NCBI GenBank assembly: GCA_009746045.1
Contig: RPFO01001017.1
Location: 62,001-126,000, forward strand
Direction of reading: 5' to 3'
Source of the DNA: Mesostigma viride
Lineage: Eukaryota > Streptophyta > Mesostigmatophyceae > Mesostigmatales > Mesostigmataceae
Length of the DNA: 64,000 nt
Shown: positions 27,335 through 64,000 of the stretch, one piece after another
Position numbering within the stretch: the first letter of the stretch is position 1
How the letters are laid out: each line of letters starts with the position of its first letter
Notes under the pieces: generated by a model
Databases searched by the model: none
What the model was told of the DNA's origin: nothing
What the model saw: only the letters and a program-made list of their open reading frames with translations
Translations under genes and position numbers: made by a program

Positions 27335-30300
27335 CTACTCCAGGAACGACCCTTCCGCCATGAACTGCAGGCGATCAACTAGCAATGGACTCTGTACAAT
27401 ACAAATCGAACCTCGTCACCTTAGGCCTGACTGGGTGGAGCAGCTTCGTAGCCAACTCAAATACTGCAATAGGATGAAGATGGGTTGAGCAATGAGCATT
27501 TTCATAACCAAAGCTCTTATTGTAACCGGGCCTATGTGGGTTCAACCACCTCGAACCAACGGCATTATTCATTGTTTTCATGGTGTATCTAACACTCAAG
27601 GGCAGCTTCCTTATGACCCCCTTATCCCTCACCTGCAGGCTGGCCAGCGCGCGCTCGGCGGTCGCCTTGGCCTCCGGGTACCTCGCCAGCTGGCACAGCT
27701 CCAGCAGGTGCTGCGCGGCGCCGTAGCGCAGTATGGTGTCGCGGTTCTCCTCGTTGTGGTAGGCCAGGCACGACAACGCGCGCGCCGCCTTCACCTTGGC
27801 AGCCAGCACCGAGGAGGAGGGGGATGAAGAAGAAGAGGGGAGTGTGCCATTGCTGCTGGTGCCGTCACCGTTCGAGGATCGTCCACCGTGGCTGAGGCGG
27901 AGGACGGAAATGAGGGCGGGGATGCCACCTGTTGGCGGGCGCAGGAGAGTACTTTAAGATGTCAGTATTAACCAAAGAGCATGGAGAGCTACAGGCATCC
28001 AGCAGATGTCACGGTGTCGACACGATGCCCTTCTGTGCCCTACCTGCATGACAATGGAGCCGAATAGCGACCGCAGTAACAACAACTCTTGCCCCCTACT
28101 TGCATGACAAATGAAACTAACCAGCCAACGCACCGACGGCATTTTATCTTCTACCTGCATGCATAATGCCACCAACCAACCGCCGATTCACCATCCTGCC
28201 CCGTACCTACATGATGAATGAAACCTGACAAACACAATGACCTCAAACCATCCTGCCCCCTACCTGCATGATGAATGAAACCTGACAAACACAATGACCT
28301 CAAACCGTCCTGCCCCCTACCTGCATGATGAATGAAACCTGACAAACACAATGACGTCAAACCATCCTGCCCCGTACCTACATGATGAATGAAACCTGAC
28401 AAACACAATGACGTCAAACCATCCTGCCCCGTACCTACATGATGAATGAAACCTGACAAACACAATGACGTCAAACCATCCTGCCCCCTACCTGCATGAT
28501 GAATGAAACCTGACAAACACAATGACGTCAAACCATCCTGCCCCCTACCTGCATGATGAATGAAACCTGACAAACACAATGACGTCAAACCATCCTGCCC
28601 CCTACCTACATGATGAATGAAACCTGACAAACACAATGACGTCAAACCATCCTGCCCCCTACCTACATGATGAATGAAACCTGACAATTCCAATGACGCC
28701 AAGCCCGCCTGCCCTGTTCCTGTGTGGCGGATGGCACCGACCAGCTGTCATGATGCCGACGCCATCATCCCCCCACCCACCTGCACGCCCTCATCCAGCG
28801 CCACGGGCAAGGGCACCGACCCGCCGTGGCGACAACCGTAGTAAGGCAGGGGGATACCGACAGGAGTCAAGCACCCACCTGCGTGCCGGATGGCGGACCG
28901 CGTGCCCTCGTCCAACGCCAGGTTGCCCAGGGCGCCTGCTGCCTTGGCCTGGCCGTCCGGCGTGCCAGAGACCAGCAGCGAGACTAGCGCGGGCACCGCC
29001 CCCGCGCGCGCCAACCGCGGCCGGTGCTTCGCGTCCAGCGCCAGGTTCCACAACACGGCGGCCGCGCTCGGGCGGCACTCGGCGGGCCCCCGCGCCACCA
29101 GCAGCACCAAGTCCTCCACGCAGCGCTGGCGGCGGCAGCAACAGGGTGGAACAAGGATCAGAATTGGCGGCGGCAGCAACGGGGGAGGGAGGGAGGAATT
29201 AGGAGGAACGGGGTGAGTCAGGGTGGCCAAAGGGGGAGGAGCGGGATGGGTGGTGCTGGCAGTGAAGCGGGGTGAAGATGGGGGAGCATGGGGTTGGATA
29301 GGGGTTGGAGCGGGGTGGTCAGGGAAGAAGTGAGTGATGAAGGGGGGGCGATACAGCTGGCCAAGCAAAGGGAGAGGGGGGGGAGGGGGGACATATGCTC
29401 TGATCAAGCAAGCTGTTTCCGGCCCCACCGTCTAGGGCATCTAGTCGCTCTACACGTAAGCCAGCCATAATTTCAATGCACAAGGCTACACATTTCCATC
29501 ACCATTCATATTCATCATCCTGAACGACTCGAACACGCGGACACGATAACGGCAGGCTCGAGCTACCATGGTCCGGATTCTTCCGATTTCTGGCCTGCGC
29601 TGGTTGTCTCCTTGATATGCGGAAGCCAGGCTTGTAGGGGAAGAGGGTGGGAGCCGAGATGGTGTTGGTGGTGGTGGGGGGGCGGAAAAGGGAAGGATGC
29701 AGGTGCCAAAAGAGGACCAGGACGGCACACTCAGCCAATGAGTGACAAGTAGGTGATGGATCTCCAGAACACGATCATGGTGAGCCAGGTGGAGTCTCCA
29801 TCAGTGTGCCCACGAACAGGCTCTATGGACACACTGGATGACAGGACATGGGAACCGACTGCTGTGCACAGTGAGATGGTTGGTGGCATCCGTCACATGC
29901 TGTTATTGGGTACTCAAGTGCCTCTATCCCAGGTCACTGTAGCACTACTGTCCCAGGTCACTCTACCAGTTGTATCCTGACGTCACCTGTAAGCACTTGA
30001 AGGCCCCAGCTCCCTCTATCAGACACTCACATGCGACCCCGCGATGTGCTATCCCAGATCACTCTAGCCCTTCTATTCCAGGTCCCTCTACCAGACAAAC
30101 GAGCGCACGCTCACATGCGACCCCGCGATGTGCTATCCCAGATCACTCTAGCACTTCTATTCCAGGTCCCTCTACCAGACCAACGAGCGCACGCTCACAT
30201 GCGACCCCGCGATGTGCTATCCCAGATCACTCTAGCACTTCTATTCCAGGTCCCTCTACCCGACAAACGAGCGCACGCTCCCATGCGACCCCACAATGTG

Positions 30301-33300
30301 CTATCCCAGATCACTCTAGCCCTTCTATTCCAGGTCCCTCCACCAGACAAACGAGCGCACGCTCCCATGCGACCCCGCGATGTGCTATCCCAGATCACTC
30401 TAGCCCTTCTATTCCAGGTCCCTCCACCAGACCAACGAGCGCACGCTCCCATGCGACCCCACAATGTGCTATCCCAGATCACTCTAGCCCTTCTATTCCA
30501 GGTCCCTCCACCAGACAAACGAGCGCACGCTCCCATGCGACCCCGCGATGTGCTATCCCAGATCACTCTAGCCCTTCTATTCCAGGTCCCTCTACCCGAC
30601 AAACGAGCGCACGCTCACATGCGACCCCGCGATGCGCTATCCCAGATCACTCTAGCACTTCTATTCCAGGTCCCTCTACCGCTGAGACCAACGAGCGCAC
30701 GCTCACATGCGACCCCGCGATGTGCTATCCCAGATCACTCTAGCACTTCTATTCCAGGTCCCTCTACCAGACAAACGAGCGCACGCTCCCATGCGACCCC
30801 GCGATGTGCTATCCCAGATCACTCTAGCCCTTCTATTCCAGGTCCCTCTACCAGACCAACGAGCGCACGCTCCCATGCGACCCCGCGATGTGCTATCCCA
30901 GATCACTCTAGCCCTTCTATTCCAGGTCCCTCCACCAGACCAACGAGCGCACGCTCACATGCGACCCCGCGATGTGCTATCCCAGATCACTCTAGCCCTT
31001 CTATTCCAGGTCCCTCTACCCGACCAACGAGCGCACGCTCCCATGCGACCCCACAATGTGCTATCCCAGATCACTCTAGCACTTCTATTCCAGGTCCCTC
31101 TACCCGACCAACGAGCGCACGCTCACATGCGACCCCGCGATGTGCTATCCCAGATCACTCTAGCCCTTCTATTCCAGGTCCCTCTACCAGACCAACGAGC
31201 GCACGCTCACATGCGACCCCGCGATGCGCTATCCCAGATCACTCTAGCCCTTCTATTCCAGGTCCCTCCACCAGACAAACGAGCGCACGCTCACATGCGA
31301 CCCCACGATGTGCTATCCCAGATCACTCTAGCCCTTCTATTCCAGGTCCCTCCACCAGACCAACGAGCGCACGCTCCCATGCGACCCCACAATGTGCTAT
31401 CCCAGATCACTCTAGCCCTTCTATTCCAGGTCCCTCTACCAGACAAACGAGCGCACGCTCACATGCGACCCCGCGATGTGCTATCCCAGATCACTCTAGC
31501 CCTTCTATTCCAGGTCCCTCCACCAGACAAACGAGCGCACGCTCCCATGCGACCCCGCGATGTGCTATCCCAGATCACTCTAGCCCTTCTATTCCAGGTC
31601 CCTCCACCAGACAAACGAGCGCACGCTCCCATGCGACCCCACAATGTGCTATCCCAGATCACTCTAGCCCTTCTATTCCAGGTCCCTCTACCAGACCAAC
31701 GAGCGCACGCTCACATGCGACCCCGCGATGTGCTATCCCAGATCACTCTAGCCCTTCTATTCCAGGTCCCTCCACCAGACAAACGAGCGCACGCTCACAT
31801 GCGACCCCACAATGTGCTATCCCAGATCACTCTAGCCCTTCTATTCCAGGTCCCTCTACCAGACAAACGAGCGCACGCTCCCATGCGACCCCGCGATGTG
31901 CTATCCCAGATCACTCTAGCCCTTCTATTCCAGGTCCCTCCACCAGACAAACGAGCGCACGCTCACATGCGACCCCGCGATGTGCTATCCCAGATCACTC
32001 TAGCCCTTCTATTCCAGGTCCCTCCACCAGACAAACGAGCGCACGCTCACATGCGACCCCGCGATGTGCTATCCCAGATCACTCTAGCCCTTCTATTCCA
32101 GGTCCCTCTACCCGACAAACGAGCGCACGCTCACATGCGACCCCGCGATGTGCTATCCCAGATCACTCTAGCCCTTCTATTCCAGGTCCCTCTACCAGAC
32201 AAACGAGCGCACGCTCCCATGCGACCCCGCGATGTGCTATCCCAGATCACTCTAGCCCTTCTATTCCAGGTCCCTCTACCAGACCAACGAGCGCACGCTC
32301 CCATGCGACCCCACGATGTGCTATCCCAGATCACTCTAGCCCTTCTATTCCAGGTCCCTCTACCAGACAAACGAGCGCACGCTCCCATGCGACCCCGCGA
32401 TGTGCTATCCCAGATCACTCTAGCACTTCTATTCCAGGTCCCTCCACCGCTGAGACCAACGAGCGCACGCTCACATGCGACCCCACGATGTGCTATCCCA
32501 GATCACTCTAGCCCTTCTATTCCAGGTCCCTCTACCAGACAAACGAGCGCACGCTCCCATGCGACCCCGCGATGTGCTATCCCAGATCACTCTAGCCCTT
32601 CTATTCCAGGTCCCTCCACCAGACAAACGAGCGCACGCTCCCATGCGACCCCGCGATGTGCTATCCCAGATCACTCTAGCACTTCTATTCCAGGTCCCTC
32701 CACCCGACAAACGAGCGCACGCTCCCATGCGACCCCACGTTGTGCTATCCCAGATCACTCTAGCCCTTCTATTCCAGGTCCCTCTACCGCTGAGACCAAC
32801 GAGCGCACGCTCACATGCGACCCCACAATGTGCTATCCCAGATCACTCTAGCCCTTCTATTCCAGGTCCCTCCACCAGACAAACGAGCGCACGCTCACAT
32901 GCGACCCCACGTTGTGCTATCCCAGATCACTCTAGCCCTTCTATTCCAGGTCCCTCTACCGCTGAGACCAACGAGCGCACGCTCCCATGCGACCCCACGA
33001 TGTGCTATCCCAGATCACTCTAGCCCTTCTATTCCAGGTCCCTCCACCAGACAAACGAGCGCACGCTCCCATGCGACCCCACGATGTGCTATCCCAGATC
33101 ACTCTAGCCCTTCTATTCCAGGTCCCTCTACCGCTGAGACAAACGAGCGCACGCTCCCATGCGACCCCGCGATGTGCTATCCCAGATCACTCTAGCCCTT
33201 CTATTCCAGGTCCCTCCACCAGACCAACGAGCGCACGCTCCCATGCGACCCCACGATGCGCTATCCCAGATCACTCTAGCACTTCTATTCCAGGTCCCTC

Positions 33301-36300
33301 TACCGCTGAGACCAACGAGCGCACGCTCCCATGCGACCCCACGATGTGCTATCCCAGATCACTCTAGCACTTCTATTCCAGGTCCCTCCACCAGACAAAC
33401 GAGCGCACGCTCCCATGCGACCCCGCGATGTGCTATCCCAGATCACTCTAGCCCTTCTATTCCAGGTCCCTCCACCAGACAAACGAGCGCACGCTCCCAT
33501 GCGACCCCGCGATGTGCTATCCCAGATCACTCTAGCCCTTCTATTCCAGGTCCCTCCACCCGACAAACGAGCGCACGCTCACATGCGACCCCACGATGTG
33601 CTATCCCAGATCACTCTAGCACTTCTATTCCAGGTCCCTCCACCAGACAAACGAGCGCACGCTCCCATGCGACCCCGCGATGTGCTATCCCAGATCACTC
33701 TAGCCCTTCTATTCCAGGTCCCTCCACCCGACAAACGAGCGCACGCTCACATGCGACCCCGCGATGTGCTATCCCAGATCACTCTAGCACTTCTATTCCA
33801 GGTCCCTCTACCAGACAAACGAGCGCACGCTCACATGCGACCCCGCGATGTGCTATCCCAGATCACTCTAGCACTTCTATTCCAGGTCCCTCTACCCGAC
33901 AAACGAGCGCACGCTCACATGCGACCCCGCGATGCGCACGCGGTTGCCCTCCGACAGCGACAGCGACCACAGCGCGGCGCTGGCGTTGGTCACCGCGTCG
34001 CCCCAGTGGAGGCAGGGGGGCGACGAAGGCAGGTCCGAAGAAGGAGCAGAACCAGGAGGTGGGTAAGGGCTGAGATGACCCGCTGCGCCCTTGCTGCCGC
34101 CGTTGCTTGAACTGTGCTGACTGCTGATGCACGCGCCACACGCGCAGGCGACACTCGCGCCCACCGCCGCCCTCCCGTCCTGGTCCTCCCGCCCACTGGC
34201 AGCATTAGCAACCCCCTGTTTGTGGGCGGTGGAGGCCTCCCTGCGGCAGCTGGCATCCGCGCCAACCGGCCTCAACGGCGTGGGCGTGGGCGAGCACTGT
34301 GGCACGCGGGGGGTGGCCGGTGATGGGCACCCGGGCGTGCGGTGGTGGCGCCGCTCCGTGTCCCCAGGACTGGAACCCGCAACGTCCACAGGGGACCGGT
34401 GCGCCCGTTGCGGCCCTGCCTGGGCACCCCCGCTGGGGCTGGCCGCCCCCCCCCTACCACTGGCCAGTGCCAGGGCGGCCACCCCCTCCCCCAGTAGCGC
34501 CATGAGGGGTTTGATTGCGCCCGCTTGCGCGATGGCGGCCTTGCAGCGCCCGCTCTTGCTGCACAGGTTGGCCAGCACGCGCGCCGCCATGCTGCGCTGA
34601 AACAGGGGCAGGCCTCCGTCGACAGACAAGGAAGGGGCGTTGCCAGATGCACCCGCTGCCCCACCCTGGCCGGCACCCTCAGACCTGAACGAAGGCACAG
34701 CGCCCGTGTGGCCGTGCCCACCGCGCGTGTTGCGGAGGAGAGCCACTAGCGCCGCCGCGCCTCCCGCGTGCACAATGGCCAGCTTGTGACGTTCATCAGT
34801 GGCACCTGCGCCCTCCCCGGATGCGGCCGTGCTGCCATCCGCCCCCATCGTTGCCCTCACACACACGCCATCCCCCTCGGGCTGCTGCAGCAACACCACC
34901 AGCGCATCGGGGGCAGCCGGCAGGCCCTTGGTGGGGGCGGGAGAGGCATCTGGTGTGGGCGCGGCCCCTGGCGTCCCTGGTGCGCCGGCGCCCAGCACCA
35001 GGTCGTCCCAGGACAGGGAGCGCGACGCCGCGGTGACGTCTGCCAGTGTTACCTGGTGGCGGCACGATGCCATGAGGCGCGAGCACAACGCATGACGATG
35101 AGGGCGCGAGAACTGGGTTCAATAGAGCAAAGCACCCACCATGTGTGCAGGCAAGGTTCCACGCAGGAGGGCAGCACCGACAAGTGCGTGCCATTCGGGT
35201 GGCTGTGCATCCTACTAGAGCGGAGTAGATGGGACAACGGATTCCCCCATTTGCCTGTAACGAGCAGCTGCCCTTGCCATGTGGCACCATGTGGCGCAGT
35301 GAATTGGGGGCATGGGCAACAATCAAGGGGCATGAGGGGCATGGGACCGTACGGCTGTAGTTGAACCAAAAGCGCAAGCCAATGCGAGAGAGCCCACGCC
35401 CCCCGTGCCCCCCATGCCACCCCGTACCCCCAGCATGACAGCATGCACGCAAGGGGCCACAGCGAGCATGACAGTGTGGGCCAGACATCGCAGACATCGC
35501 AGCGATGGCATGACACGCAGAATGGCCCACCACCGCGCGCGTTGGGCCCTCTACACAACAGTAGAGCCTCCATATTAAAGCTCACAGGTGAGAACACTGA
35601 AGGGGCCACGCACCACCGCGCGCGTCCGGTCCTCTGCGCACGCGCTGCCCAGCTGCGTCACCAGCGACGTCACGCGCTCCGCTTTCGCCACCGCCACCAA
35701 GCGAGCATGCCACCGCTGGCTCTGCTCCAGCTCGCACCGTGCAGACGCCAGCTCAGCGCGCAGGTCGGTCAGCGCCGCGCCGGCCTGGCGCAGGATGGCG
35801 TGTGCGGGGCCGTGCCAGACGCAAGAGACATGGTGGCGGGGCTGAGTCGACCCCACTTGCGGCCGACCTGGTGCCGGGGCCGTGACGCCGGCACAGCCAC
35901 ATGCCTCGCCTCCAGCATCGCTGTCATTATGATGACCGTGATCAGCATCACCATGGGGGTTCCCATCACCCCCGGGCGTTGATGCCACGGGACGGTTCGT
36001 GCTGCGAGCGGACCCCGGCGTTGCTTGCGGGAACAACTCCTGGCCCCACGACTGCACCACGGTCATCAGCTCCATCTCCCGCTGCTCGGCGCGCTGCCGG
36101 CGGTCCACCTGCACCCGCAGCTCGCCCTCCAGCCGGCCCTTCTCCTCGTGGACCCGCTTGGCCGCCTCCGCCAGCGCGGACACCTCCGCCAGCTGGCCGC
36201 GCAGCTGCAGCCGCTCTTTCTCTAGGAAGCGGATGTAGGCGCGCTGGAACGCCGACGTGGCCTCCAATTTGGTCTGGTCCGCCGATACCTTGTGGCATAG

Positions 36301-36741
36301 TGCCGATACCTTGGACAACCGCTTGCTGAAGTCGAATTGGGGCTCTGGGGATGATGGGGCATGTTCGGTGGTATCGTTGAATAGGTCGGAGAAGGGAGCC
36401 TGAGCGTTGGCGGGTAGGCTGCTGTCAGGAACGGTGAATTGCGGGCCGCGTTTCTTAGACGGCGTGAGGATGGACTTGAGCTTTATCCCCAGAGGCGACC
36501 CGCTCGCTATCTCTGCTTTTATCCGTGACTTCTTCTCAGGCGTCGTCATTTTCCACAGTCCGCTTCCGGCATTGCTTTCATTCGTCACTTCGCTGAGTGC
36601 GTGCCGGTTCTCACGTCCGACGGCCGGGGACTTCGGATCTAGTGACCTGCGTACCTCGTTGACCATGTGAAGACCCCATTTCTCGCTATCAATTCTGCTT
36701 GGACATGACATTCTTAACGACCCTTTATATGGTGGAAACAC
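27335..36741 (-). CDS. Coiled-coil and armadillo-repeat protein
   Basis: Exons on the minus strand: 36741-35614, 35052-33919, 29125-28879, 27928-27633, 27364-27335. Phases close to a 944-residue protein. Exon 1 is basic, with Ser/Pro-rich segments and coiled coil (about residues 137-235: LEKERLQLRGQLAEVSALAE, then EKGRLEGELRVQVDRRQRAE) and a second helical stretch before its end. From there armadillo repeats follow: LVTQLGSACAEDRTRAV, HAGGAAALVALLRN, AARVLANLCSKSGRCKAAIA, NASAALWSLSLSEGNRVRIA, AAAVLWNLALDAKHRPRLAR, KAAGALGNLALDEGTRSAIR and ALSCLAYHNEENRDTILRYG. Low-complexity Ala/Gly/Pro inserts split the exon 2 repeats. Armadillo arrays are protein-binding scaffolds; no partner can be named. 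The tiny last exon (FMAEGSFLE) is inferred from phase. Two introns consist mostly of minisatellites. Confidence 0.82.
27985..28183 (-). repeat. Decayed units of the 57-bp minisatellite
   Basis: At least three diverged units (CCCTACCTGCATGACAATG, CCCCTACTTGCATGACAAAT, TTCTACCTGCATGCATAATG) continue the array at 28184-28700 on its distal side. Each keeps a CATGCAG|GTAG-like or CATGCAAG|TAG minus-strand junction. Confidence 0.7.
28184..28700 (-). repeat. 57-bp minisatellite, 9 copies
   Basis: The unit is CCATCCTGCCCCCTACCTGC plus ATGATGAATGAAACCTGACA plus AACACAATGACGTCAAA, period 57 bp. It lies in intron 3 of the armadillo gene. On the gene's strand every unit contains CATGCAG|GTAGGGGG or CATGTAG|GTACGGGG, closely resembling the real exon 3 donor CACGCAG|GTGGGTG (28879/28878). 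Intermediate copies lie between exon and array at about 28718 and 28776. Confidence 0.9.
29488..29622 (+). repeat. Dispersed short repeat (copy 2)
   Basis: See the copy at 10815-10942. It contains GGCTCGAGCTACCATGGTCC and GCCTGCGCTGGTTGTCTC. It lies in intron 2 of the armadillo gene. Confidence 0.65.
30001..33930 (-). repeat. 84-bp minisatellite, 47 copies, with 172-bp higher-order units
   Basis: The unit contains CATGCGACCCCGCGATGTGC, TATCCCAGATCACTCTAGC and CGAACGAGCGCACGCTC-type segments. The first and last ATG of CATGCG lie at 30031 and 33919: 46 intervals of 84 bp plus six 4-bp insertions (GCTGAG variants at 30681, 32449, 32789, 32961, 33133, 33305). The last four are 172 bp apart, i.e. 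dimer units. The array abuts the donor of exon 2 of the armadillo gene (33919/33918), and the unit includes that donor: units with CTCACATGCG read CAT|GTGAGC on the gene's strand, while units with CTCCCATGCG have lost the GT. Long open frames across it in several registers follow from 84 being divisible by 3. Confidence 0.93.
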
Positions 36742-38016: not shown

Positions 38017-39198
38017 ATGTCCGCCTACTCGGATCCTAGTGTCCAAACCGCGATCATTAAGTCCACCTTGGAGTTGTTGACCAATGCCATGACCGAGCGA
38101 GCAAGGCTGCTGTCCAACTGGGAGCTGGACAAGCATCGGCAGCAGCAAAAGCTTCAGGTAAATGCCACTCGCCCCTTCGGCGGTCTCATAGCAGCTGGTC
38201 TTCGGACGCTGGGCGCAGGTGAAGGTCGCGCGTGCCCACTGCATGCAAATTGATTCTATCTCTTTCCCCGGCTCCGCCATGCTGCTCTGCAGGCAAACCT
38301 GTTGAAGAAGAAAGCCAAGAAGGAGAGCGAGAACGCGTCGGCGTCGCCCGTGATCACGCCGTCCTCGCCGCGGACGGTCGCGTCCCCGCGCGCGAAGGAC
38401 GAGCCGGCCAAGGACGAGGCGGGGAAGGAGGAACACGATCTGCGGCCGTCCGAGAGCACGTGCGTTAGCTGCAACCTGCCGATGGCGAGCCAGGCGGGGT
38501 TCGCCGTGCGTGGCGATGTCTGGCACGCACAGTGCTTTGTCTGTGAGGCGTGCAAAAAGCCCTTCCCCGACAACGTGTTTGTGCCGCGCGAGGTGCCCCC
38601 TGAGGAGTCCGGCGGCGAGCATAAGGAGAAGTTCTACTGCTTGCCCTGCCACATCGACCTGTTTGCGGCGCGCTGCGTCGGCTGCGGGGAGGTCATCCGC
38701 GACAGCACATACCTGACAGCGTTGGGTGGCGGATGGCACGAACGCTGCTTCGTGTGCACCCACTGCAAGAAGCCGTTTCCGGACAGCTCATTCATGACGC
38801 GCGATGACAAGGCCTACTGCGCGGCCGACTTCAACGAGCTATTTGCACCGCGCTGCACTGCGTGCCACAAGCCCATTTTGGTCGACGAGGACGTGATCCA
38901 CTACAAGGACAACATGCTGCACCCGGCCTGCTTCCGCTGCGCCATCTGTGCGTGCCTGCTCACCGACAAGTTCCACGAGAAGGGTGGCGCCACGTTCTGC
39001 TCCAAGTGCTACGACGACCGCTTTGGGATGCACTGCCTCAAGTGCACGGCGATCATATCGGGCAGCGCGCTCAAGGCGCTGGGCGGGCTGTGGCACCCTG
39101 AGTGCCTCACCTGCACCAAGTGTGACGTCCAGTTGACGGGGATCATGAAGGACATTCAGGGGAAGCCCTACTGCAAGGAGTGCGCGGCAACCATGTAG
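38017..39198 (+). CDS. Four-LIM-domain protein
   Basis: Two exons, 38017-38157 and 38293-39198, with intron donor CAG|GTAAAT and acceptor CTGCAG, join in phase 0 to a 348-residue protein. Residues 1-50 are helical and charged (MSAYSDPSVQTAIIKSTLEL…). Residues 52-103 are a Lys/Ser/Pro-rich linker with SPR-type sites. Four LIM double zinc fingers follow at about 104-171, 175-231, 235-291 and 295-345 (for example CVSC … HAQC … CEAC; CVGC … HERC … CTHC; CTAC … HPAC … CAIC; CLKC … HPEC … CTKC … CKEC). The first LIM has a longer second loop with an acidic insert. LIM arrays bind proteins, often cytoskeletal; the order resembles paxillin-type tails without LD motifs. The stop is three residues after the last zinc ligand. 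Confidence 0.93.
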
Positions 39199-39420
39199 GG
39201 GTGGAGGGGGGGGGGGGGGTGGCGGGGGGCTACTGCAGCAAGAGCGAAGCTGCCCTGTATGGAGGTTGTTGGGGGGTTGGTCTACTGCAAGGACTTTGCC
39301 GCGACCATCGAGGGGGGCCATGTTCAACATACTCGCAAAACAATCCCCAAAGCCGTAGTTAGGGGAGGCCCGAACGCAAGGAGCTTGCCGCCAGCGCATG
39401 GATGAAGGGGGCCATGGACT
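39199..39420 (+). repeat. Three decayed copies of the LIM gene's coding end
   Basis: The gene end TACTGCAAGGAGTGCGCGGC (39169) reappears as TACTGCAGCAAGAGCGAAGC at 39231, TACTGCAAGGACTTTGCCGC at 39283 and CGCAAGGAGCTTGCCGCCAG at about 39373, each followed by a G-rich stretch like the one after the stop. Confidence 0.8.
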
Positions 39421-54400: not shown

Positions 54401-57400
54401 CACGGTGGAACATGACGGGTTGTCTCACCTGCTGTTGGTGGGGTGGACCACGGTGGAACATGACGGGTTGTCTCACCTGCTGTTGGTGGGGTGGACCACG
54501 GTGGAACATGACGGGTTGTCTCACCTGCTGTTGGTGGGGTGGACCACGGTGGACCATGACGGGTTGTCTCACCTGCTGTTGGTGGGGTGGACCACATGAC
54601 GGGTTGTCTCACCTGCTGTTGGTGGGATGGACCACGGTGGAACATGACGGGTTGTCTCACCTGCTGTTGGTGGGGTGGACCACGGTGGAACATGACGGGT
54701 TGTCTCACCTGCTGTTGGTGGGGTGGACCACGGTGGAACATGACGGGTTGTCTCACCTGCTGTTGGTGGGGTGGACCACGGTGGAACATGACGGGTTGTC
54801 TCACCTGCTGTTGGTGGGGTGGACCACGGTGGAACATGACGGGTTGTCTCACCTGCTGTTGGTGGGGTGGACCACGGTGGAACATGACGGGTTGTCTCAC
54901 CTGCTGTTGGTGGGGTGGACCACGGTGGAACATGACGGGTTGTCTCACCTGCTGTTGGTGGGGTGGACCACGGTGGAACATGACGGGTTGTCTCACCTGC
55001 TGTTGGTGGGGTGGACCACGGTGGAACATGACGGGTTGTCTCACCTGCTGTTGGTGGGGTGGACCACGGTGGAACATGACGGGTTGTCTCACCTGCTGTT
55101 GGTGGGGTGGACCACGGTGGAACATGACGGGTTGTCTCACCTGCTGTTGGTGGGGTGGACCACGGTGGAACATGACGGGTTGTCTCACCTGCTGTTGGTG
55201 GGATGGACCACGGTGGAACATGACGGGTTGTCTCACCTGCTGTTGGTGGGGTGGACCACATGACGGGTTGTCTCACCTGCTGTTGGTGGGGTGGACCACG
55301 GTGGAACATGACGGGTTGTCTCACCTGCTGTTGGTGGGGTGGACCACGGTGGAACATGACGGGTTGTCTCACCTGCTGTTGGTGGGGTGGACCACGGTGG
55401 AACACGACGGGTTGTCTCACCTGCTGTTGGTGGGGTGGACCACGGTGGAACACGACGGGTTGTCTCACCTGCTGTTGGTGGGGTGGACCACGGTGGAACA
55501 TGACGGGTTGTCTCACCTGCTGTTGGTGGGGTGGACCACGGTGGAACATGACGGGTTGTCTCACCTGCTGTTGGTGGGGTGGACCACGGTGGAACATGAC
55601 GGGTTGTCTCACCTGCTGTTGGTGGGGTGGACCACGGTGGAACATGACGGGTTGTCTCACCTGCTGTTGGTGGGGTGGACCACGGTGGAACATGACGGGT
55701 TGTCTCACCTGCTGTTGGTGGGGTGGACCACGGTGGAACATGACGGGTTGTCTCACCTGCTGTTGGTGGGGTGGACCACATGACGGGTTGTCTCACCTGC
55801 TGTTGGTGGGGTGGACCACGGTGGAACATGACGGGTTGTCTCACCTGCTGTTGGTGGGGTGGACCACGGTGGAACATGACGGGTTGTCTCACCTGCTGTT
55901 GGTGGGGTGGACCACGGTGGAACATGACGGGTTGTCTCACCTGCTGTTGGTGGGGTGGACCACGGTGGAACATGACGGGTTGTCTCACCTGCTGTTGGTG
56001 GGGTGGACCACGGTGGAACATGACGGGTTGTCTCACCTGCTGTTGGTGGGGTGGACCACGGTGGAACATGACGGGTTGTCTCACCTGCTGTTGGTGGGGT
56101 GGACCACGGTGGAACATGACGGGTTGTCTCACCTGCTGTTGGTGGGGTGGACCACGGTGGAACATGACGGGTTGTCTCACCTGCTGTTGGTGGGGTGGAC
56201 CACGGTGGAACATGACGGGTTGTCTCACCTGCTGTTGGTGGGGTGGACCACGGTGGAACATGACGGGTTGTCTCACCTGCTGTTGGTGGGGTGGACCACA
56301 TGACGGGTTGTCTCACCTGCTGTTGGTGGGGTGGACCACGGTGGAACATGACGGGTTGTCTCACCTGCTGTTGGTGGGGTGGACCACGGTGGAACATGAC
56401 GGGTTGTCTCACCTGCTGTTTGTGGGGTGGACCACGGTGGAACATGACGGGTTGTCTCACCTGCTGTTGGTGGGGTGGACCACGGTGGAACATGACGGGT
56501 TGTCTCACCTGCTGTTGGTGGGGTGGACCACGGTGGAACATGACGGGTTGTCTCACCTGCTGTTGGTGGGGTGGACCACGGTGGAACACGACGGGTTGTC
56601 TCACCTGCTGTTGGTGGGATGGACCACATGACGGGTTGTCTCACCTGCTGTTGGTGGGGTGGACCACGGTGGAACATGACGGGTTGTCTCACCTGCTGTT
56701 GGTGGGGTGGACCACGGTGGAACATGACGGGTTGTCTCACCTGCTGTTGGTGGGGTGGACCACGGTGGAACATGACGGGTTGTCTCACCTGCTGTTGGTG
56801 GGGTGGACCACATGACGGGTTGTCTCACCTGCTGTTGGTGGGGTGGACCACGGTGGAACGTGACGGGTTGTCTCACCTGCTGTTGGTGGGGTGGACCACG
56901 GTGGAACATGACGGGTTGTCTCACCTGCTGCCGTGCGATAGACCACGGTGTGACATGGTTATATGACGGGTTGTCTGACCCAGCATCATGTGGGGACCTT
57001 ATTCTCCTTTCTTGCGTCTGTGTGCGGTCACCGCCGGTGCATGGGAACATCCTTGTGATGTCTGTCGCCCCTGTGACTGGACACTGCTCGCGTTGGCACG
57101 TTGCGGCGGCGGCCAGACTTCCACCATCAGTCTCGGTGACTGGGCCAACATCATCGCGTTCCTCATCATGCTCTGGGGTGGGTGACGCGGGGGGGGGCGG
57201 GGATGGGGTAGGGGATGGGTTAGGGAATGGGGTGGGTGATAAGGCGGGTGATGGGGTAGAGGGTGGCGTAGGGGATGGGGTAGGGGATGGGGTAGGGGAT
57301 GGGGTAGGGGATGGGCTGGGGGAAGGGGTAGGGGATGGGTTATGGAATGGGGTCAGTGATGGGGTGAGTGATGAGGGTGAATGACGGACAGGTTCTGTGA

Positions 57401-60400
57401 GGAAGGGCTGTGGAGAGGGCCACGTGCTTGGGTCCAGTGGATGATCGCCGGTAGTGCGGACGAGCGTATGGAATGATCAGGCATCCCACGGGGTGCGTGC
57501 TGCTCCACTAGCCCCCCATGCTGCGTGCCATACATCCATGAGAGGGGGTGCCCTGTGCCATACCGTGAATCATCTGGCCATACGCGTCACGCCACGACAC
57601 GCCATGCCGCTAGCATGTCATGCTCCGTACTGCACCTTTTTCAAGTGCGCGAGTAACGATTCCTTGCCCCTGCAACGGCTGCTTCTGGCATGGCGGCGCT
57701 ATCGAGGGCATGGCGGCCAGAGTCAGGCCTCGGGGGAGCAGTGGGTACTGGGCGATCATACCCATGTGTGGATGCCTCACCTGCGGCAGGCCTTGCGCAC
57801 TTAACACGCACTGCTGTTACATGGAGATCCTGGTGAGGGGTACTGAGTACCCAGTTGTAGGGGTACCGGACACCTGTTCGAAAGGGACACTTGGCGATTT
57901 GTGGATGTCTCACCTACCCGATGGCACTGCCCACCCCCCATGCCCCCAACCTGGCTCCCTGCAGGTATCTACCTGAGGATGCACTCCACCGATGAGGAGT
58001 GGGCGGGATGTATCCTAAAACTGTCACCTGTCACCTGTCACCTGCCGCTTTTCGCCTGCCGCATGCCTGCCCATCATTATCTACGCCAGTCCTTCCCTAC
58101 GCCATTCCTTGTTGCGGGCACCCTTGCTTTGCCCACCCTTCCTCAGCCAGGTCACACGGATGAAAGCTATTCCTTAACGCAGTATGACATGGCCATTCGG
58201 GCACCCTACCGCGGAGGTAAATGGCCATCTGTGGGCTGATTCCCTGCATGGGGCCAACCGGACATGGGATGGTTCATGGGGCGGTAATGGCGCGCAGGCC
58301 TGATGTGCCGCCTTATTCTGGCGTTCGGGCTGTTTGGCTTTGCGGGCGGCATCACCAACTGGATTGCGGTGAAAATGCTTTTTGACAAGGTGAGGCGTGA
58401 GTGGATATGCTCATGCGGTGTGGTGTGGGGGCCCAGTCATGTGATGCTACCGCTTGCTCTGAAGGGAGATCACTTTTTACGACCAGTAGCCCTAGTAGTA
58501 CTAGTACTGCCAATGGGTCATCATCAAGATGCTCCTTGAGACAAGGTGGGCAGCCATTGGCCAGTTTGGTGACTCGGCAGCGTGGTGTTAGGGAAGACCT
58601 TACAGTAGTACTGACTACTGCTGCTGTACCGTTTTCAAGGTGCACTTTGACAGCGTGACTTTGACAGTGCGATATGCCAGGCTACCAACGCTGCAGGTTG
58701 TTGTTTACCCCAGGACAGACTGTCTGGGCATCCGCGGTCTGCCGTATTTGTCGCCTTGGCATGTCGTCCCTATCGTCATTGTGGCAGGCATCGGTGCACA
58801 CGCCAATGGGTTGCCTGCTTGTTGTGTGTTGTCCCACCGCTCTTGTAGCGCTCTTATGCTGATGCTGGTGCTGCACCGCATGTTGACCTGGTTGCGGGCT
58901 GCTTGTCTATTCAAACTTAATGAATGCTCAGTGTATACTGGGGCTACTGGCAACTGCGCTTCCTTCTTGCTCTACCGTACCCCCTGCTCTGCTTATCATC
59001 GAACCCCTTGCAACTGCGCTTCCTTCTTGCTCTACCGTACGCTCTGCGTCTACCACAGTGTGCATGCGCGTTCGTGTGTGCTTTGACTTCTAAATTATGT
59101 GCCCGTGCTTTGCGGGCGTTATACCTCCGTGAGTGTGCGTGCGTGTGTGTATGTCTGTGCATGCGTGTGTGTCTGTGTGCGTGTGTTTGTGTGTGTTTAT
59201 GTCTGTGTCTGTGTGCATGTTTCTGTGTGCGCGTTTCTGTGAGCGCCACACCTGTGTGTGTGTGCGTGCGGTGGCCGCCAGGTCCCTGGGCTGTACGGCA
59301 GCGGCGTCATCCCTGACAGGTTTCGGGAGATCCGCGCCACCATCAAGGACATGCTGATGGACACATGTGAGTAACGTGGCGATCATGAGCATAAGGAATT
59401 AGGGGAGGGGGGGGACATGTTGATGGACACATGTGTGCATGCTAGCTGAGCATCCTAGTACTACTAGTACTGCTATATAATCATTCAGATGCGCACCAGT
59501 GTGTATCGTTGCCACAGCATTACAAATTAGGCCAGTACACGCTGATAGGCGCATGTGGGTGTGCAAGACCGTTTATCGTGGTCCATGATGACAGGGAGGG
59601 AGGGAGTAAAGGACCCAGGGATGGAGTAACGGACAGCGGGAGAAGGATGACGAATACAATCCTGGTCTGTGCTTCACACGGCAACGACAAACTGCTGCCA
59701 TGCTGCATGCCTATCACAGCAGCCGTGTGCGACCAAGGGGCACTACCTGCAGGAGAAGATAACAGCACGTTGAGACGGCAGATAGGGGTGTCAAGACGGC
59801 AGTATGGGTGTGAACACGGCAGATAGGGGTGTCAAGGCAGCAGATAGGGGTGTGGAGACGGCAGATAAGTATGTCGAGACGGCATATAGGAGCGTCCAGG
59901 CGGCAGATAGGAGTGTTGAGACGCAGATAGGGTTGTTGCGACTCCGACGATGGTAACGCGACATGCTTGCGGAGCATCGCAGCTAGGCGGTAGCTATCAT
60001 AGTAGTATCTGACCTGTCTTTTTCTAGCAAACAGCAGGGCATCCGCTCCGCACGTGAACTCTGCCACCAGCGTTGGGGTTGGTCAAAAGTACTAGCGACG
60101 ATCAAGCACAGCGCAGGCCGTTGCATAGTCGTTGTGTAGGCCAGTTGCTAACAGGAGTCACATGGTCATCTCCCAATTTATGTAGCTTTGTGGAAATGTA
60201 ACCGTCCTGTCCTATCCTATCCTGAGCATTTTGCTGCATTCCAGTTGTAGCTGGGTTCTCAACGGGTTGAGGGAAACATGTGGGTCGGCAGGCATGCACA
60301 ACCTGCGCGACTGTCGTGAGGGAAACACGTGGATCGAGGCATGCACAGCCTGCGCGACTGTCGTGAGGGAAACACGTGGATCGAGGCATGCACAACCTGC

Positions 60401-63400
60401 GCGACTGTCGTGAGGGAAACACGTGGGTCGGCAGGCATGCACAACCTGCGCCACTGTCGTGAGGGAAACACGTGGGTCGGCAGGCATGCACAACCTGCGC
60501 GACTGTCTTGAGGGAAACACGTGGATCGAGGCATGCACAACCTGCGCGACTGTCGTGAGGGAAACACGTGGATCGAGGCATGCACAACCTGCGCGACTGT
60601 CGTGAGGGAAACACGTGGGTCGGCAGGCATGCACAACCTGCGCGACTGTCGTGAGGGAAACACGTGGATCGAGGCATGCACAACCTGCGCGACTGTCGTG
60701 AGGGAAACACGTGGGTCGGCAGGCATGCACAACCTGCGCGACTGTCGTGAGGGAAACACGTGGGTCGGCAGGCATGCACAACCTGCGCGACTGTCTTGAG
60801 GGAAACACGTGGATCGAGGCATGCACAACCTGCGCGACTGTCTTGAGGGAAACACGTGGGTCGGCAGGCATGCACAACCTGCGCGACTGTCGTGAGGGAA
60901 ACATGTGGGTCGGCAGGTGTGCACCATACTACGCTACGCTATTGTCGTATGTGCACGTGCTACTCCTGTTATATCTTGCAATGCCAATCCAATATGCATG
61001 TTTGACCTGGGTTGATTTTTCACTTTTTGTGTGCTGCCTTCGTTGCTTTGCGACAACATCGTTGCCCTCCTGGCTTTGCACATGCTTCTGGCTGTACTCT
61101 CGTGTCAGGCAAGTCGTTGCTCATAGTCTGCCCGCGTAATGCTGGTGCCCATCGGCCACTTCCCTAATACTGCCAACTTCACCTGCCTGGGTCTCCGTTT
61201 CCTTGCCCCACCTCTGCTTTCCGTTGTGGACACTTGGGCAACCTGTCGTCCGCCGCGCCAGTCTTCAACCCGGACTTCATGCGGCACCACATGAGCCGCA
61301 AGATCGACAAGCTGTCTGACTCCTTGGACCTCAGTACGTGTGCTCTAGTCATAGATGGCAGATTCCTTGCGCATGTGACATCATTCCCTGTGCACGTGAC
61401 ATCTTGAGCTGATGTGGTTGGCAAATTTTGTGTAATTGGGAATTCGTCATCGCCCTGTCGTGTGTATGTGTGCGTGTGTGTGTGCTCCACTGGTGGCACG
61501 GCTTGTGCCTTGTATGCGTATGGTGTAATGAGAGTAGTTCCTGCGCCGTCAAAGACACGAGCAAGTGTGGCATCAGGGACGGCCAGGACTGCCCAATCAC
61601 AAGAAAATAAATAATGTCTTGCTAAATTAGTACCCTCCCTTGGAATCCCCCAGTGATTATCGCCAGGTATGTTCCTTCCAACTGTTGATGTGCCTTGTGG
61701 CTTGTTACTTGTTTGTTTTGTGCCTATTCTTAGCATTCAAGTAAATATGAATTACTATTACTTGATAGCCGTGTCGCTATCGATCACAGTAAAGTCACGT
61801 CCCACTTTTTCCTGACCAAATGGGCAATGACGCCATCGCTCCACACTCTCGCTAAGCGAACACCGCATTAAGGCACGCATAGCAAGCTATGTATGAGATG
61901 CTATTTCGCCAAGAAGTTTTCTGTGCTCTCCCTGCTGGACCCCATCCCTACCACACCTTAACATTCCTGGCAATAAAAATTCTAGCTGTAAACCATTACA
62001 AATATTAAGTTTCAAGGTTTACACCCTACCTATGTTATGGTGCGGTAACTGCCCTTTTTGGCATTTTCATATGGAGGAGTAGTGTGAATAAACCAGCTAA
62101 ACTTATTCCCCCTCCTCCCCTCCCCTCCCCCCTTTTCCCCCTTTTGTGTGTGGCCCCACCACCACCTTGCGACCACACCTCGCGACCACCACGCTGCGAC
62201 CACCACCGCCCTCAACATTTGTGCTGGTAGCCGACAAGATCCGTGCCATGATGGAGAGCGATGACGTGGACAAGCTGTTGGACGCCAAACTGTTCGAGAT
62301 GGGCACGCGGCCTGAAGGTATAGTGACTGCTATAGTGACTTATGCATGCCGAGCTATTTGGTAAACGATGGCTTGGACAAGCACCCACTCACAAGCGGCT
62401 GGACGCAAAGCTGTGCGAGAGGCGCACATGGCAGAAGCGCGAGCCCATAAGCATGCAGGCAGCGATGTGGCAGATATTAGGCTGGTCCGCGCATAAGACA
62501 TGTAATAAGATGGAATAAGAATAGCAGACAGCATCCATGAAGTGCTTTATTCACGAGATACTATCAACTATAATTGTTGTTTATTATCATACTAATTAAT
62601 CATTGTTCTATACCAATTGACACGGGCAGGGCACAAACCTCGTTGCGGAAAATATCTGGAAATGATATTAGTTATTACATCATACCAGCTGTCATGGTAA
62701 TTACATGGTACCAATAGTAGTAGTGATTACGTGGTTCCAATAGTAGTAGTGATTACGTGGTTCAAATAGTAATAGTGATTACGTGGTTCCAATAGTAGTA
62801 GTGATTGCGTGGTACCGATGGCAACTGTGATGCTGGAAGAGTGCACCATGCAGCGCAGGCAGTACAAGGTGCTCCACAGAAGAGTCTTGTCCACAGCCCT
62901 GATAGGCACTTGAAACCAAACTGGCGTTTGCTCTGTACAAACTGTCGTTGCTACCATTCTCAGGCTGTCCTGATGCCACCCTGGCGCGCGTGTGTCTGGC
63001 TGACCCCAGTCTTCTGAGTTCGTGGGCTTATTGCTGGCATCCCCTTTTTTTTCTATTGTTTCTTCTCGCGTTGCCCATGCCTGCGATGTTTCCCAGTGCT
63101 TTCTTGCCGTATTCCCTCGGGCATATCCTAGGGTTGACTCCATGTACTAGGTAATGCACTCGGATCATGCGTCCATGAACCTAGCGCAGAAGTGTACTGC
63201 GCTACAGTAGCGTAAAACCTTATCGCTACTATACAGGGGTGATGGCGTGTCCATAGGTCCATGAGGTCCTAACCGGCCTGTTCATTCTGCCGCAACATCT
63301 TTCTACCTACATGTCTTGTTTGTCAAAACCCTACTTCATAACCCTGGGTGCCGACCCAGGCAAGGTATTTGGGACGGCGTCCGCCTGTGTCCCCCTGCCT

Positions 63401-63790
63401 CGTGTGACCGCCCACGCATGATGCTGGGGATGGCATCTGCCTCAATCCCTTTTTCGCATAAAACGACGTCCGTCGATCCTGTGGTACCCCGCCCAGGCGT
63501 GATGTCAGCGATGATGTCGTCCCACATCCCAATCTCGTGGGAACTGGCAGTACCTGTTTGCCGGAGCACTGCCTGCCATTCCTACCCGGTGGTTCAGCGC
63601 CCAGGCATGACGTTCGTCATGATGGGCCGCACCCCCTGTTCGTGCCTCACCCTCTGTTCTCGCCGCACCCCCTCTTCCTGTTGTCTTCTGCCCAGGCATG
63701 ATGTTTGCGATGATGGGCCTGACGCCTGACAAGCTCAAGCCGATCGTCAAGCCCTTCTTCCTGTCGATGAGCAAGGATGTGGGCCCGCTG
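51442..63790 (+). CDS. DUF445-family membrane protein (partial at 3' end)
   Basis: Exons: 51442-51578, 52502-52571, 57117-57177, 57965-58009, 58298-58389, 59282-59366, 61262-61333, 62231-62317, 63696-63790, all phase-consistent; the gene continues past the window. The acidic N-terminus (MNSARERMLSEGKEMSRMVD…) is followed by a membrane segment WANIIAFLIMLWGIYLRM, then ILAFGLFGFAGGITNWIAVK merging into the DUF445 signature GGITNWIAVKMLFD. Next are VPGLYGSGVIPDRFREIRAT, FFNPDFMRHHMSRKIDKLSD, DKIRAMMESDDVDKLLDAKL and MGLTPDKLKPIVKPFFLSMS. DUF445 proteins are membrane proteins of unknown function, common in bacteria and present in algae. The small exons contrast with very long, repeat-filled introns (intron 2 is 4.5 kb). 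Confidence 0.88.
51579..52501. other. DUF445 intron 1
   Basis: No repeat array or exon was recognised. It has several TGCTGCC-rich imperfect repeats near 52290-52440. Confidence 0.45.
52602..52862. mobile_element. Foldback (MITE-like) element with about 80-bp inverted arms
   Basis: The left arm, 52602-52680 (TATATATTCGTTGAGAATGA … GAGGTGAGATTGGCA … CATAAGGAAAACCCC … GAACCCTGAAGAAATTAA), is the inverted complement of the right arm, 52775-52862, with few mismatches and a roughly 95-bp loop. There is no coding capacity. A partial copy is at 16258-16395. Confidence 0.88.
52870..52940 (+). repeat. CTGCTGTAAGTAATTATA retro-tail
   Basis: GGGTGCCTTTACTCTGCTGT followed by AAGTAATTATATTTTTAAAT matches the 3' terminus of the element at 7095-7491 and the inverted copy at 19110. 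Confidence 0.7.
52941..53818. other. DUF445 intron 2, non-array part
   Basis: It has AT-rich TATACTA repeats near 53080-53145, a (CA)n run at 53708-53735, and no exon. Confidence 0.5.
53819..56965 (+). repeat. 48-bp minisatellite, about 66 copies, with 40-bp variants
   Basis: The unit TGACGGGTTGTCTCACCTGC plus TGTTGGTGGGGTGGACCACG plus GTGGAACA is 48 bp. Interspersed 40-bp units lack CGGTGGAA. Short units end at about 53891, 53979, 54307, 54587, 55251, 55771, 56291, 56619 and 56803. Intervals of 520 bp occur twice in succession and 328 bp twice, showing higher-order duplication. Open frames on both strands follow from 48 being divisible by 3. It lies in DUF445 intron 2. Confidence 0.93.
57178..57383 (+). 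repeat. 12-bp G-rich repeat starting at the DUF445 exon 3 donor
   Basis: About 16 units of GGGGTAGGGGAT / GGGGTGGGTGAT. The true donor context is TGGG|GTGGGTGACG, so the unit resembles the donor itself. Confidence 0.82.
57384..57964. other. DUF445 intron 3 remainder
   Basis: No exon or clear array was recognised. Confidence 0.45.
58390..59281. repeat. DUF445 intron 5: 60-bp duplication and GT-rich run
   Basis: CAACTGCGCTTCCTTCTTGC plus TCTACCGTAC occurs at 58951 and 59011, 60 bp apart. 59128-59270 is a degenerate (GT)n tract (TGTGTGCGTGTGTTTGTG…) ending just before the exon 6 acceptor. Confidence 0.75.
59413..59442 (+). repeat. Copy of the DUF445 exon 6 end and donor
   Basis: GGACATGTTGATGGACACAT|GTGTGC copies the true GGACATGCTGATGGACACAT|GTGAGT (59366/59367), 66 bp downstream, with GT kept. 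Confidence 0.85.
59772..59930 (+). repeat. 21-bp minisatellite, about 8 copies
   Basis: The unit GAGACGGCAGATAGGGGTGTC varies in each copy. It lies in DUF445 intron 6. Confidence 0.8.
60262..60925 (+). repeat. 47/49-bp minisatellite, 14 copies
   Basis: The unit is CGTGAGGGAAACACGTGG plus ATCGAGGCATGCA or GTCGGCAGGCATGCA plus CAACCTGCGCGACTGT. The 47-bp (ATCGA) and 49-bp (GTCGGCA) forms are mixed. It lies in DUF445 intron 6. Confidence 0.9.
61334..62230. other. DUF445 intron 7
   Basis: No exon is needed here: exon 7 (phase 1) joins exon 8 directly. A GTGTATGTGTGCGTGTGTGT tract lies at about 61460-61480 and a CCACCACC/TTGCGACCAC repeat just before the acceptor. Confidence 0.5.
62391..62437 (+). 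repeat. Copy of the DUF445 exon 8 end
   Basis: AAGCGGCTGGACGCAAAGCT plus GTGCGAGAGGCGCACATGGC plus AGAAG copies the exon 8 end (62271-62317), 120 bp downstream. The donor GT has become CG. Confidence 0.82.
62697..62818 (+). repeat. 26-bp repeat, about 5 copies
   Basis: The unit GATTACGTGGTTCCAATAGT plus AGTAGT lies in DUF445 intron 8. Confidence 0.85.
63353..63690 (+). repeat. Four decayed copies of the DUF445 exon 9 acceptor and start
   Basis: The true junction GCCCAG|GCATGATGTTTGCG has its CCC at 63691. Copies with CCC at 63600 (CCCAGGCATGACGTTCGTCA), 63492 (CCCAGGCGTGATGTCAGCGA), 63411 (CCCACGCATGATGCTGGGGA) and 63355 (CCCAGGCAAGGTATTTGGGA) become less similar with distance. Confidence 0.87.
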
Positions 63791-63834
63791 GTACGCCAGT
63801 AAACATGTCTTCACCCACCGTGGTACTAGTACCA

Positions 63835-64000
63835 CTATGCCTATGAGAGCAAGGACGGGGGGCCCTTTGTAGATCCCCCCTTTTTCCTGTTCATGAGCAA
63901 GCGCGTGCGTCCGATGGTAGGTGGACATGGCTCCCTCGCCATCCCTCCAGGTACTTGTACATCGATAGGGGCAAGCATGTGGGGCCTTTGGTAGGTGTAT
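63835..64000 (+). repeat. Three decayed copies of the DUF445 exon 9 end and donor
   Basis: The true end is GAGCAAGGATGTGGGCCCGC plus TG|GTACG (63790/63791). Copies: GAGCAAGGACGGGGGGCCCT plus TTGTAG (about 63868), GAGCAAGCGCGTGCGTCCGA plus TG|GTAGG (63916), GGCAAGCATGTGGGGCCTTT plus G|GTAGG (63990). The last two keep donor-like GTAGGTG. Confidence 0.85.

What the first reader, a model, noticed from the sequence alone, without database searches (positions are those of the whole stretch)
27335..64000. Genome-wide-looking pattern: minisatellites and decayed tandem copies seeded at splice junctions
In four unrelated genes, segments of about 30-60 bp spanning an exon end and its splice site recur as decaying copies, always on the intron or 3' flank side of the true junction. 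They often lie 74-91 bp apart, with 78 bp seen in CDK11 introns 3 and 5 and DUF445 exon 9. In armadillo introns 2 and 3 the unit of a large minisatellite carries the donor. Copies seen directly: CDK11 exons 3, 4, 5, 6; DUF445 exons 6, 8, 9 (both sides); LIM last exon; armadillo exons 2 and 3. Inference: a replication or repair process active at exon ends duplicates junctions, leaving rows of spare splice sites, and may drive intron growth. Models in which tandem duplication containing AGGT creates introns are known, but this repeated one-sided decay series is not something I can name.
Basis: partly seen in the sequence, partly recalled or inferred. Interest (0 to 1): 0.9.

Follow-up and report, generated by a model that had tools for sequence, protein, structure and literature searches.

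The report
Duplicated exon ends in algal introns
In this stretch of the green alga Mesostigma viride, short pieces of exon ends really are repeated in decayed form inside the neighbouring introns, but this looks mostly like ordinary local DNA duplication that leaves readable traces at exon edges, not a special process aimed at splice sites.

Summary
The window matches Mesostigma viride gene models. With corrected gene models, 14 of 46 exon edges have a copy of their terminal 30 bp within 400 bp of adjoining noncoding DNA. Controls: 0 of 46 on the reverse strand; 2 of 694 tests against introns of other genes. A fifth gene outside the reported range has one too (1 of 5 edges). One-sidedness follows from geometry plus selection. 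Interiors of the same introns are duplicated about as often (10.9 hits expected at edges, 14 seen, P=0.12), and a stop-codon edge is duplicated as well. An excess at 3' exon ends (10 families, 3.8 expected; 5.1 after a detection correction, P=0.034) is suggestive only. Unexpectedly, only 5 of 15 families repeat the whole unit including its intronic part; simple tandem duplication with neutral decay fits this poorly (P 0.003-0.005). The genome search did not complete, so "genome-wide" is untested.

The parts
27416..36711 (-). Armadillo-repeat gene, 5 exons: 36711-35614, 35052-33919, 29125-28879, 27928-27633, 27463-27416
   Evidence: Open frame across GT..AG introns; Pfam Arm hit. No published model checked.
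29912..33941 (-). 84-bp minisatellite starting in the last ~20 bp of armadillo exon 2 and filling most of intron 2; 46 copied donors besides the true one (21 GT, 25 GG)
   Evidence: intronic part in register 64/65
28190..28714 (-). 57-bp minisatellite, 9.2 copies, armadillo intron 3, unit carries CAG/TAG-GTA; one weak copy of the exon 3 end starts at 28739
35524..35557 (-). Copy of armadillo exon 1 3' end (shift 83)
   Evidence: exonic 22/27; first 25 intronic bp also similar (p=0.008), the rest of the unit not (p=0.33)
38017..39198 (+). LIM gene, exons 38017-38157 and 38293-39198; published Mv07791 apparently splices near CAT|GTAGGG to a further exon, so the last edge may be a donor or a stop
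39230..39411 (+). Three decayed copies of the end of LIM exon 2 (shifts 64, 114, 201)
43868..50454 (-). CDK11 (plant CDKG-like) gene, 7 exons: 50454-49387, 48853-48674, 48046-47889, 47259-46981, 46244-46109, 45609-45302, 43952-43868
   Evidence: exon 7 by resemblance, seen by eye, to C-termini of P0196 and P0240
48113..48139 (-). Copy of CDK11 exon 3 acceptor edge (shift -89)
   Evidence: exonic 21/23
47724..47913 (-). CDK11 exon 3 donor edge and two tandem copies (shifts 78, 159)
47325..47610 (-). Three copies of CDK11 exon 4 acceptor edge (shifts -91, -266, -350)
45871..46131 (-). CDK11 exon 5 donor edge and three tandem copies, 78-bp unit; the second copy's site reads CAG|GTAAGG, the true one CAG|GTGATT
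44965..45204 (-). Two copies of CDK11 exon 6 donor edge (shifts 129, 325)
43737..43849 (-). Copies of the CDK11 stop-codon edge (not a splice site; shifts 46, 104, 126)
51493..63790 (+). DUF445 gene, 9 exons in the window: 51493-51578, 52502-52571, 57117-57177, 57965-58009, 58298-58389, 59282-59366, 61262-61333, 62231-62317, 63696-63790; runs off the window
59413..59435 (+). Copy of DUF445 exon 6 donor edge (shift 66); weaker copies at 59482 and 59534
   Evidence: exonic 19/20
62403..62437 (+). Copy of DUF445 exon 8 3' end (shift 120)
   Evidence: not a hit with the 30-mer query
63410..63635 (+). Three copies of DUF445 exon 9 acceptor edge (shifts -91, -199, -280)
63847..63993 (+). Three copies of DUF445 exon 9 donor edge (shifts 78, 126, 200)
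53898..56930 (+). 48-bp minisatellite, 64 copies, DUF445 intron 2; touches no exon; 64 donor-like motifs on the antisense strand only (counter-example)
13057..13342 (+). Out-of-range replicate: exon of a TauD-like gene (to 13203) with a copy of its 3' end and donor at 13289-13342 (shift 121)
   Evidence: TauD domain hit lies in a later exon; this exon modelled by reading frame only

Best explanation
Local direct duplication, with copies tens to about 160 bp apart, is frequent in the noncoding DNA seen here; some products have expanded into minisatellites. A duplication that spans an exon edge copies the exon's end plus its splice site (or stop codon) into the intron or 3' flank, and is tolerated because the exon-proximal site keeps working (shown: copies and arrays; inferred: tolerance). 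Strong duplications inside exons are removed by selection, so exon edges are the coding DNA that gets copied, and the copies end up on the noncoding side (inferred from geometry). The exon original is held by protein constraint while intron originals and copies decay, so old events stay readable at edges and look like a one-sided decay series (that copies carry no coding constraint is shown; the frozen-original effect is modelled, not proven). No junction-seeking process is needed for most of the pattern. The duplication chemistry is not shown; break repair with fill-in synthesis, or slippage, are candidates.
For: Interiors of the same stretches predict 10.9 of 46 edge hits, 14 seen. Hits do not fall off into the intron: 30-bp windows starting 0-300 bp inside noncoding DNA hit in 14-44%, edges in 45% (3') and 18% (5') (inner windows were searched in both directions, edges in one). 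14 of 28 families do not reach an exon by 12 bp. A non-splice edge, the CDK11 stop codon, is duplicated. In 28 copies of 14 edges, mismatches fall evenly on codon positions (47/272, 43/275, 53/277; p=0.61), as in noncoding DNA. Units are private to their locus. A neutral-decay simulation gives edge events a 1.32-fold detection advantage. A paper read in passages calls small tandem duplications the most common short insertions in the human genome and says that insertions in humans and plants hint at break repair as their source (PMC8355091).
Against: Families reach 3' exon edges more often than uniform placement predicts: 10 against 3.8 (P=0.0008; 0.006 by Poisson), and 10 against 5.1 (P=0.034) after the detection correction; for all edges 14 against 8.3, P=0.045. 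With big arrays excluded as queries, intron interiors hit at only 9.5%, so the comparison depends on how arrays are counted. Exon interiors are not free of repeats: 91 of 1629 pseudo-edges hit (reverse strand 22 of 1629), though the run-starts printed score only 22-26 while 11 of 14 edge hits score above 26; so 'removed by selection' rests on inference. The predicted concentration of old families at edges is absent: 4 of 8 at >=90% identity, 10 of 20 below. Ten of 15 families lack a recognisable whole intronic part, which tandem duplication with neutral decay predicts poorly (Fisher P 0.003-0.005).
Confidence: 0.62

Rival explanations
1. Exon 3' ends are hot spots: a process tied to transcription or splicing (for example nicks or R-loops near donors) preferentially duplicates them.
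For: 3' edges 10 of 23 against 5.4 expected from the same stretches (P=0.008); 10 families against 3.8 expected; the armadillo intron 2 array begins inside the exon end; one of three 3' edges in a further gene.
Against: 5' edges show no excess (4 against 5.4), and 3' against 5' is not significant (Fisher P=0.11). Allowing for detection, P=0.034; if exon edges stay readable twice as long, P=0.24. A stop-codon edge is affected. Only 46 edges of four genes were tested.
Confidence: 0.2
2. Many copies are short templated insertions, not head-to-tail duplications: 20-50 bp of exon end copied into the nearby intron during break repair (polymerase-theta-like filler synthesis), so no intronic partner is expected.
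For: Ten of 15 families lack the whole intronic part although exonic identity can be high (DUF445 exon 6 19/20, CDK11 exon 3 acceptor 21/23, TauD-like exon 1 31/36); conditional simulation Fisher P 0.003-0.005.
Against: Does not by itself explain why exon ends rather than mid-exons are copied (6 of 474). Five families are in register over the whole unit, armadillo exon 1 over the first 25 intronic bp (p=0.008), and DUF445 exon 9's acceptor side has a match elsewhere in its intron (p=0.015). Nested duplications could erase the intronic part. The test was thought of after looking at the data.
Confidence: 0.15
3. The copies are functional spare splice sites or alternative exon ends kept by selection.
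For: Some copies keep a good site, e.g. CAG|GTAAGG in CDK11 intron 5; 8 of 10 nearest donor-side copies lie at a multiple of 3 (post hoc, P=0.003 uncorrected; 8 of 11 if LIM's ambiguous edge is counted).
Against: No codon-position signal; in-frame stop in the extension to the nearest copy in 10 of 10 donor families; none of three published protein models looked at uses a copied site; 25 of 46 copied donors in the armadillo array are GG; acceptor-side shifts are multiples of 3 in 0 of 7 copies.
Confidence: 0.03
4. The matches are chance or low-complexity similarity.
For: The introns are rich in simple repeats; some interior matches are near chance level (eight sets of shuffled introns gave 2-13 pairs each); CDK11 exon 5's acceptor-side match is of this kind.
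Against: 0 of 46 on the reverse strand; 2 of 694 against introns of other genes (own 14 of 46, Fisher P about 2e-16); 0-1 edge-overlapping pairs per set of shuffled introns.
Confidence: 0.01

Closest known systems
Small tandem duplications from repair of staggered DNA breaks (PMC8355091, passages seen)
   Same: Direct local copies of tens of bp, no mobile element needed
   Different: Here many are old and decayed, and only 5 of 15 families are demonstrably head-to-tail with the intronic part
Intronic minisatellites
   Same: Head-to-tail units of 33-84 bp with 87-96% matches
   Different: The armadillo intron 2 array begins inside the exon and its unit includes the live donor
[quoted passage not shown] potato RdRp case PMC4974935, passages seen; Drosophila PMC2891723, abstract and passages seen)
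   Same: A local duplication copies exon sequence with splice signals; the potato case duplicates an intron-exon structure
   Different: Here the introns already exist; no new intron position was shown
Introners / introner-like elements (recalled; in the calls only a listing, PMC4457414, and a mention)
   Same: Repeats associated with introns
   Different: Units here are private to each intron (3 short hits among 210 intron pairs)

Membership tests
Small tandem duplication | Copy in the same orientation and close by | tested here: met
   15 families direct, nearest shift 46-159 bp; reverse strand 0 of 46 edges
Small tandem duplication | Head-to-tail: the DNA between junction and copy is repeated once more after the copy | tested here: inconclusive
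   5 of 15 families yes (p<=0.01), 10 of 15 not over the whole unit; decay or a different origin
Minisatellite | Tandem array of 10-100 bp units | tested here: met
   Armadillo introns 2 and 3, CDK11 introns 5 and 6, DUF445 introns 2 and 6
Rogers-type intron gain | Duplicated exonic AGGT segment becomes a new intron at a position without one before | not tested
   No orthologous gene structures were compared; the repeats lie within existing introns
Introner elements | Similar sequence in many unrelated introns | tested here: not met
   3 of 210 intron pairs share a short hit, none at an exon-edge unit by its coordinates
   All edges 14 against 10.9, P=0.12; 3' edges 10 against 5.4, P=0.008; families at 3' edges 10 against 5.1, P=0.034 after correction
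Functional spare splice sites | Copies used in mature transcripts | not testable with these tools
   No RNA reads; three published protein models do not use copied sites

The most novel reading that the evidence does not exclude
In Mesostigma viride the 3' ends of exons are repeatedly used as templates for local copying into the downstream noncoding DNA, often without the adjoining intron sequence, so that copying is tied to the exon end itself (for example break repair coupled to transcription or splicing). This would make exon ends seeds of intron growth.
Probability: 0.15. Interest if true: 0.75.

Novelty: new member of a known kind. Interest (0 to 1): 0.42.

Why it matters
If the ordinary reading holds, exon edges act as fixed reference copies that keep old local duplications readable, giving a way to count and date them in introns of a long-intron alga near the base of the land-plant lineage; it also warns that 'one-sided' repeats at splice sites need the same-intron interior as control. 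If the excess at 3' exon ends, or the exon-only copies, hold genome-wide, there would be a testable link between exon ends, break repair and intron growth.

Tried and rejected
Chance and low complexity: rejected by reverse-strand, other-gene and shuffle controls. Coding constraint on copies: no sign. Functional extended exons: in-frame stop in 10 of 10 donor families; LIM's extension has none beyond its own stop codon. 'Young versus old' test for the frozen-original effect: no difference, so no support. Mid-exon control: passed, but judged not diagnostic. Exon-interior repeats: weak hits in 91 of 1629 pseudo-edges, 37 of them in CDK11 exon 1. Introner-like families: not found. Multiple-of-three spacing: 8 of 10 donor-side, 0 of 7 acceptor-side copies; post hoc, no mechanism given the stops, left open. 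My DUF445 exon 58151-58216 was an error, removed from then on. Pfam scans of 20 chosen open frames in 1-27 kb gave reverse-transcriptase, endonuclease and TauD domains and one DUF3138 hit below its cut-off; other genes there may have been missed. A tblastn of the LIM exon against phage records found nothing. Paper searches (capped listings) listed no title on this pattern in Mesostigma; most subscription journals are not held. Two M. viride genome papers were seen as passages: one gives mean intron length 1142 bp and repeats in 30.1% of intron space (PMC6947507); the other's held text does not use the word intron (PMC7027972).
Full report
Where the window comes from. The LIM exon gives a 100% match to a Mesostigma viride gene model (eukprot jgi/Mesvir1/127, Mv07791); that 'Mesvir1' stands for Mesostigma viride is my reading of the label. 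CDK11 matches Mv07792-RA.2 at 100% over 96% of the query, and DUF445 matches Mv07793 at 89%, the difference being my wrong exon. The three map to the window in order. Mesostigma is a streptophyte alga. One genome paper gives a mean intron length of 1142 bp and repeats in 30.1% of intron space (PMC6947507, passages).

Gene models. All modelled introns are GT..AG with intact frame. Pfam supports a protein kinase, four LIM stretches, an armadillo repeat and, below its cut-off, DUF445. The published protein models confirm the junctions of LIM, CDK11 and DUF445 with three differences. My extra DUF445 exon was wrong and was removed. The published LIM model runs past my stop into a further exon. The published CDK11 isoform seen reads through the exon 6 donor; my exon 7 resembles, by eye, the C-termini of P0196 (Oryza) and P0240 (unnamed). 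The armadillo model rests on frame and Pfam only.

The observation. Fifteen of 44 exon edges had a significant copy of their last 36 bp in 500 bp of adjoining noncoding DNA. With corrected models, 14 of 46 edges had one for the last 30 bp in 400 bp: 10 of 23 at 3' edges and 4 of 23 at 5' edges, with 0 of 46 on the reverse strand. Against the first 400 bp of introns of other genes the rate was 2 of 694. Copies of 16 edges and their shifts are listed. The 15 families discussed below are the 14 hits without the weak CDK11 exon 5 acceptor match, plus DUF445 exon 8 and the TauD-like gene. That gene lies outside the reported range, has a TauD domain in a later exon, and shows the feature at one of five edges: exonic identity 31 of 36, with donor.

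Is the junction special? Exon segments 36 bp or more inside exons match the adjoining noncoding DNA in 6 of 474 overlapping tests at score 23 or more, about as often as the reverse strand (5 of 474). That follows from any local duplication model. The fair control is the interior of the same stretch. Resampled pseudo-edges predict 10.9 hits against 14 seen (P=0.12); for 3' edges 5.4 against 10 (P=0.008); for 5' edges 5.4 against 4. This counts big arrays by length; with arrays excluded as queries, intron interiors hit in 9.5%. Counting families instead, 28 were found and 14 reach an exon by 12 bp or more; uniform placement predicts 3.8 at 3' edges (10 seen, P=0.0008) and 2.5 at 5' edges (4 seen, P=0.23). 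A simulated detection advantage of 1.32 for edges raises the expectations to 5.1 and 3.3, giving P=0.034 and 0.41, and P=0.045 for all edges. The 3'-end excess is therefore suggestive; it comes from four genes in one window, brought to attention because a reader saw it there. The predicted concentration of old families at edges was not seen (4 of 8 at 90% identity or more, 10 of 20 below). Exon interiors give weak hits in 91 of 1629 pseudo-edges, reverse strand 22.

Not splice-specific. The CDK11 stop-codon edge has copies. The 64-copy array of DUF445 intron 2 touches no exon yet contains a donor-like motif 64 times on the wrong strand, so a donor-like motif in a unit is weak evidence by itself.

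What the copies are. Mismatches to the exon, in 28 copies of 14 edges, are spread evenly over codon positions, and in 10 of 10 donor families the extension to the nearest copied donor contains an in-frame stop: they behave as noncoding DNA. In the armadillo array 21 of 46 copied donors are GT and 25 are GG (true donor left out).

An unexplained part. If a copy arose by head-to-tail duplication, the intronic part of the unit should be repeated too. In 5 of 15 families it is (armadillo exon 2; DUF445 exon 9 3'; CDK11 exon 3 3', exon 5 3' and exon 7); in 10 it is not recognisable over the whole unit, including cases with high exonic identity. Of these ten, armadillo exon 1 is similar over the first 25 intronic bp (p=0.008), and DUF445 exon 9's acceptor side has a match elsewhere in its intron (p=0.015). 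A simulation of tandem duplication with a constrained exon and neutral decay, conditioned on the exonic score, gives a combined Fisher P of 0.003-0.005 at three indel settings; individual values below 0.05 were 2 or 3 of 15. Erasure of intron sequence by nested duplications and deletions, exon-to-copy conversion, or origin as short templated insertions could each account for it.

Mechanism and verdict. Shown: local direct copies and arrays, their private nature, the absence of coding constraint on copies, and their presence at coding edges of both splice and stop type. Inferred: frequent local duplication, removal of strong exon-internal events by selection, and longer readability beside a constrained original. 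Known relatives are small tandem duplications from break repair (PMC8355091, passages) and intron gain by tandem duplication (PMC4974935 passages; PMC2891723 abstract and passages). I file the finding as a new member of a known kind, with two open signals: the 3'-end excess and the exon-only copies. The 'genome-wide' part is untested because the genome search did not complete.

Noticed in passing
13057-13342: TauD-like gene outside the reported range with a copy of an exon 3' end and donor 121 bp downstream.
   Followed up: partly
1665-5300 (-) and 20196-20900 (-): Reverse-transcriptase open frames (RVT_1, the first also with an endonuclease/exonuclease domain), LINE-like by my reading.
   Followed up: no
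53898-56930: 3-kb, 48-bp minisatellite in DUF445 intron 2 with 64 antisense CAGGTGAGA motifs and no link to an exon.
   Followed up: yes
39199-39399: Reading on past the LIM stop codon, the frame stays open for at least 67 codons across decayed copies of the protein's own end; the published model apparently splices over this stretch.
   Followed up: partly
donor-side copies: 8 of 10 nearest donor-side copies lie at a multiple of 3 bp from the true donor, 0 of 7 acceptor-side copies do; post hoc, and the donor-side extensions have stops.
   Followed up: partly
52600-52860 and 16240-16400: Near-identical stretches (two inverted copies at 52.6-52.9 kb, one at 16.3 kb) look like a small inverted-repeat element; seen by eye only.
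   Followed up: no
48561-48671 and 46262-46413: A (GGGT/GGGC)n tract begins at the CDK11 exon 2 donor, and a (CCCA)n tract ends about 17 bp before the exon 5 acceptor.
   Followed up: no
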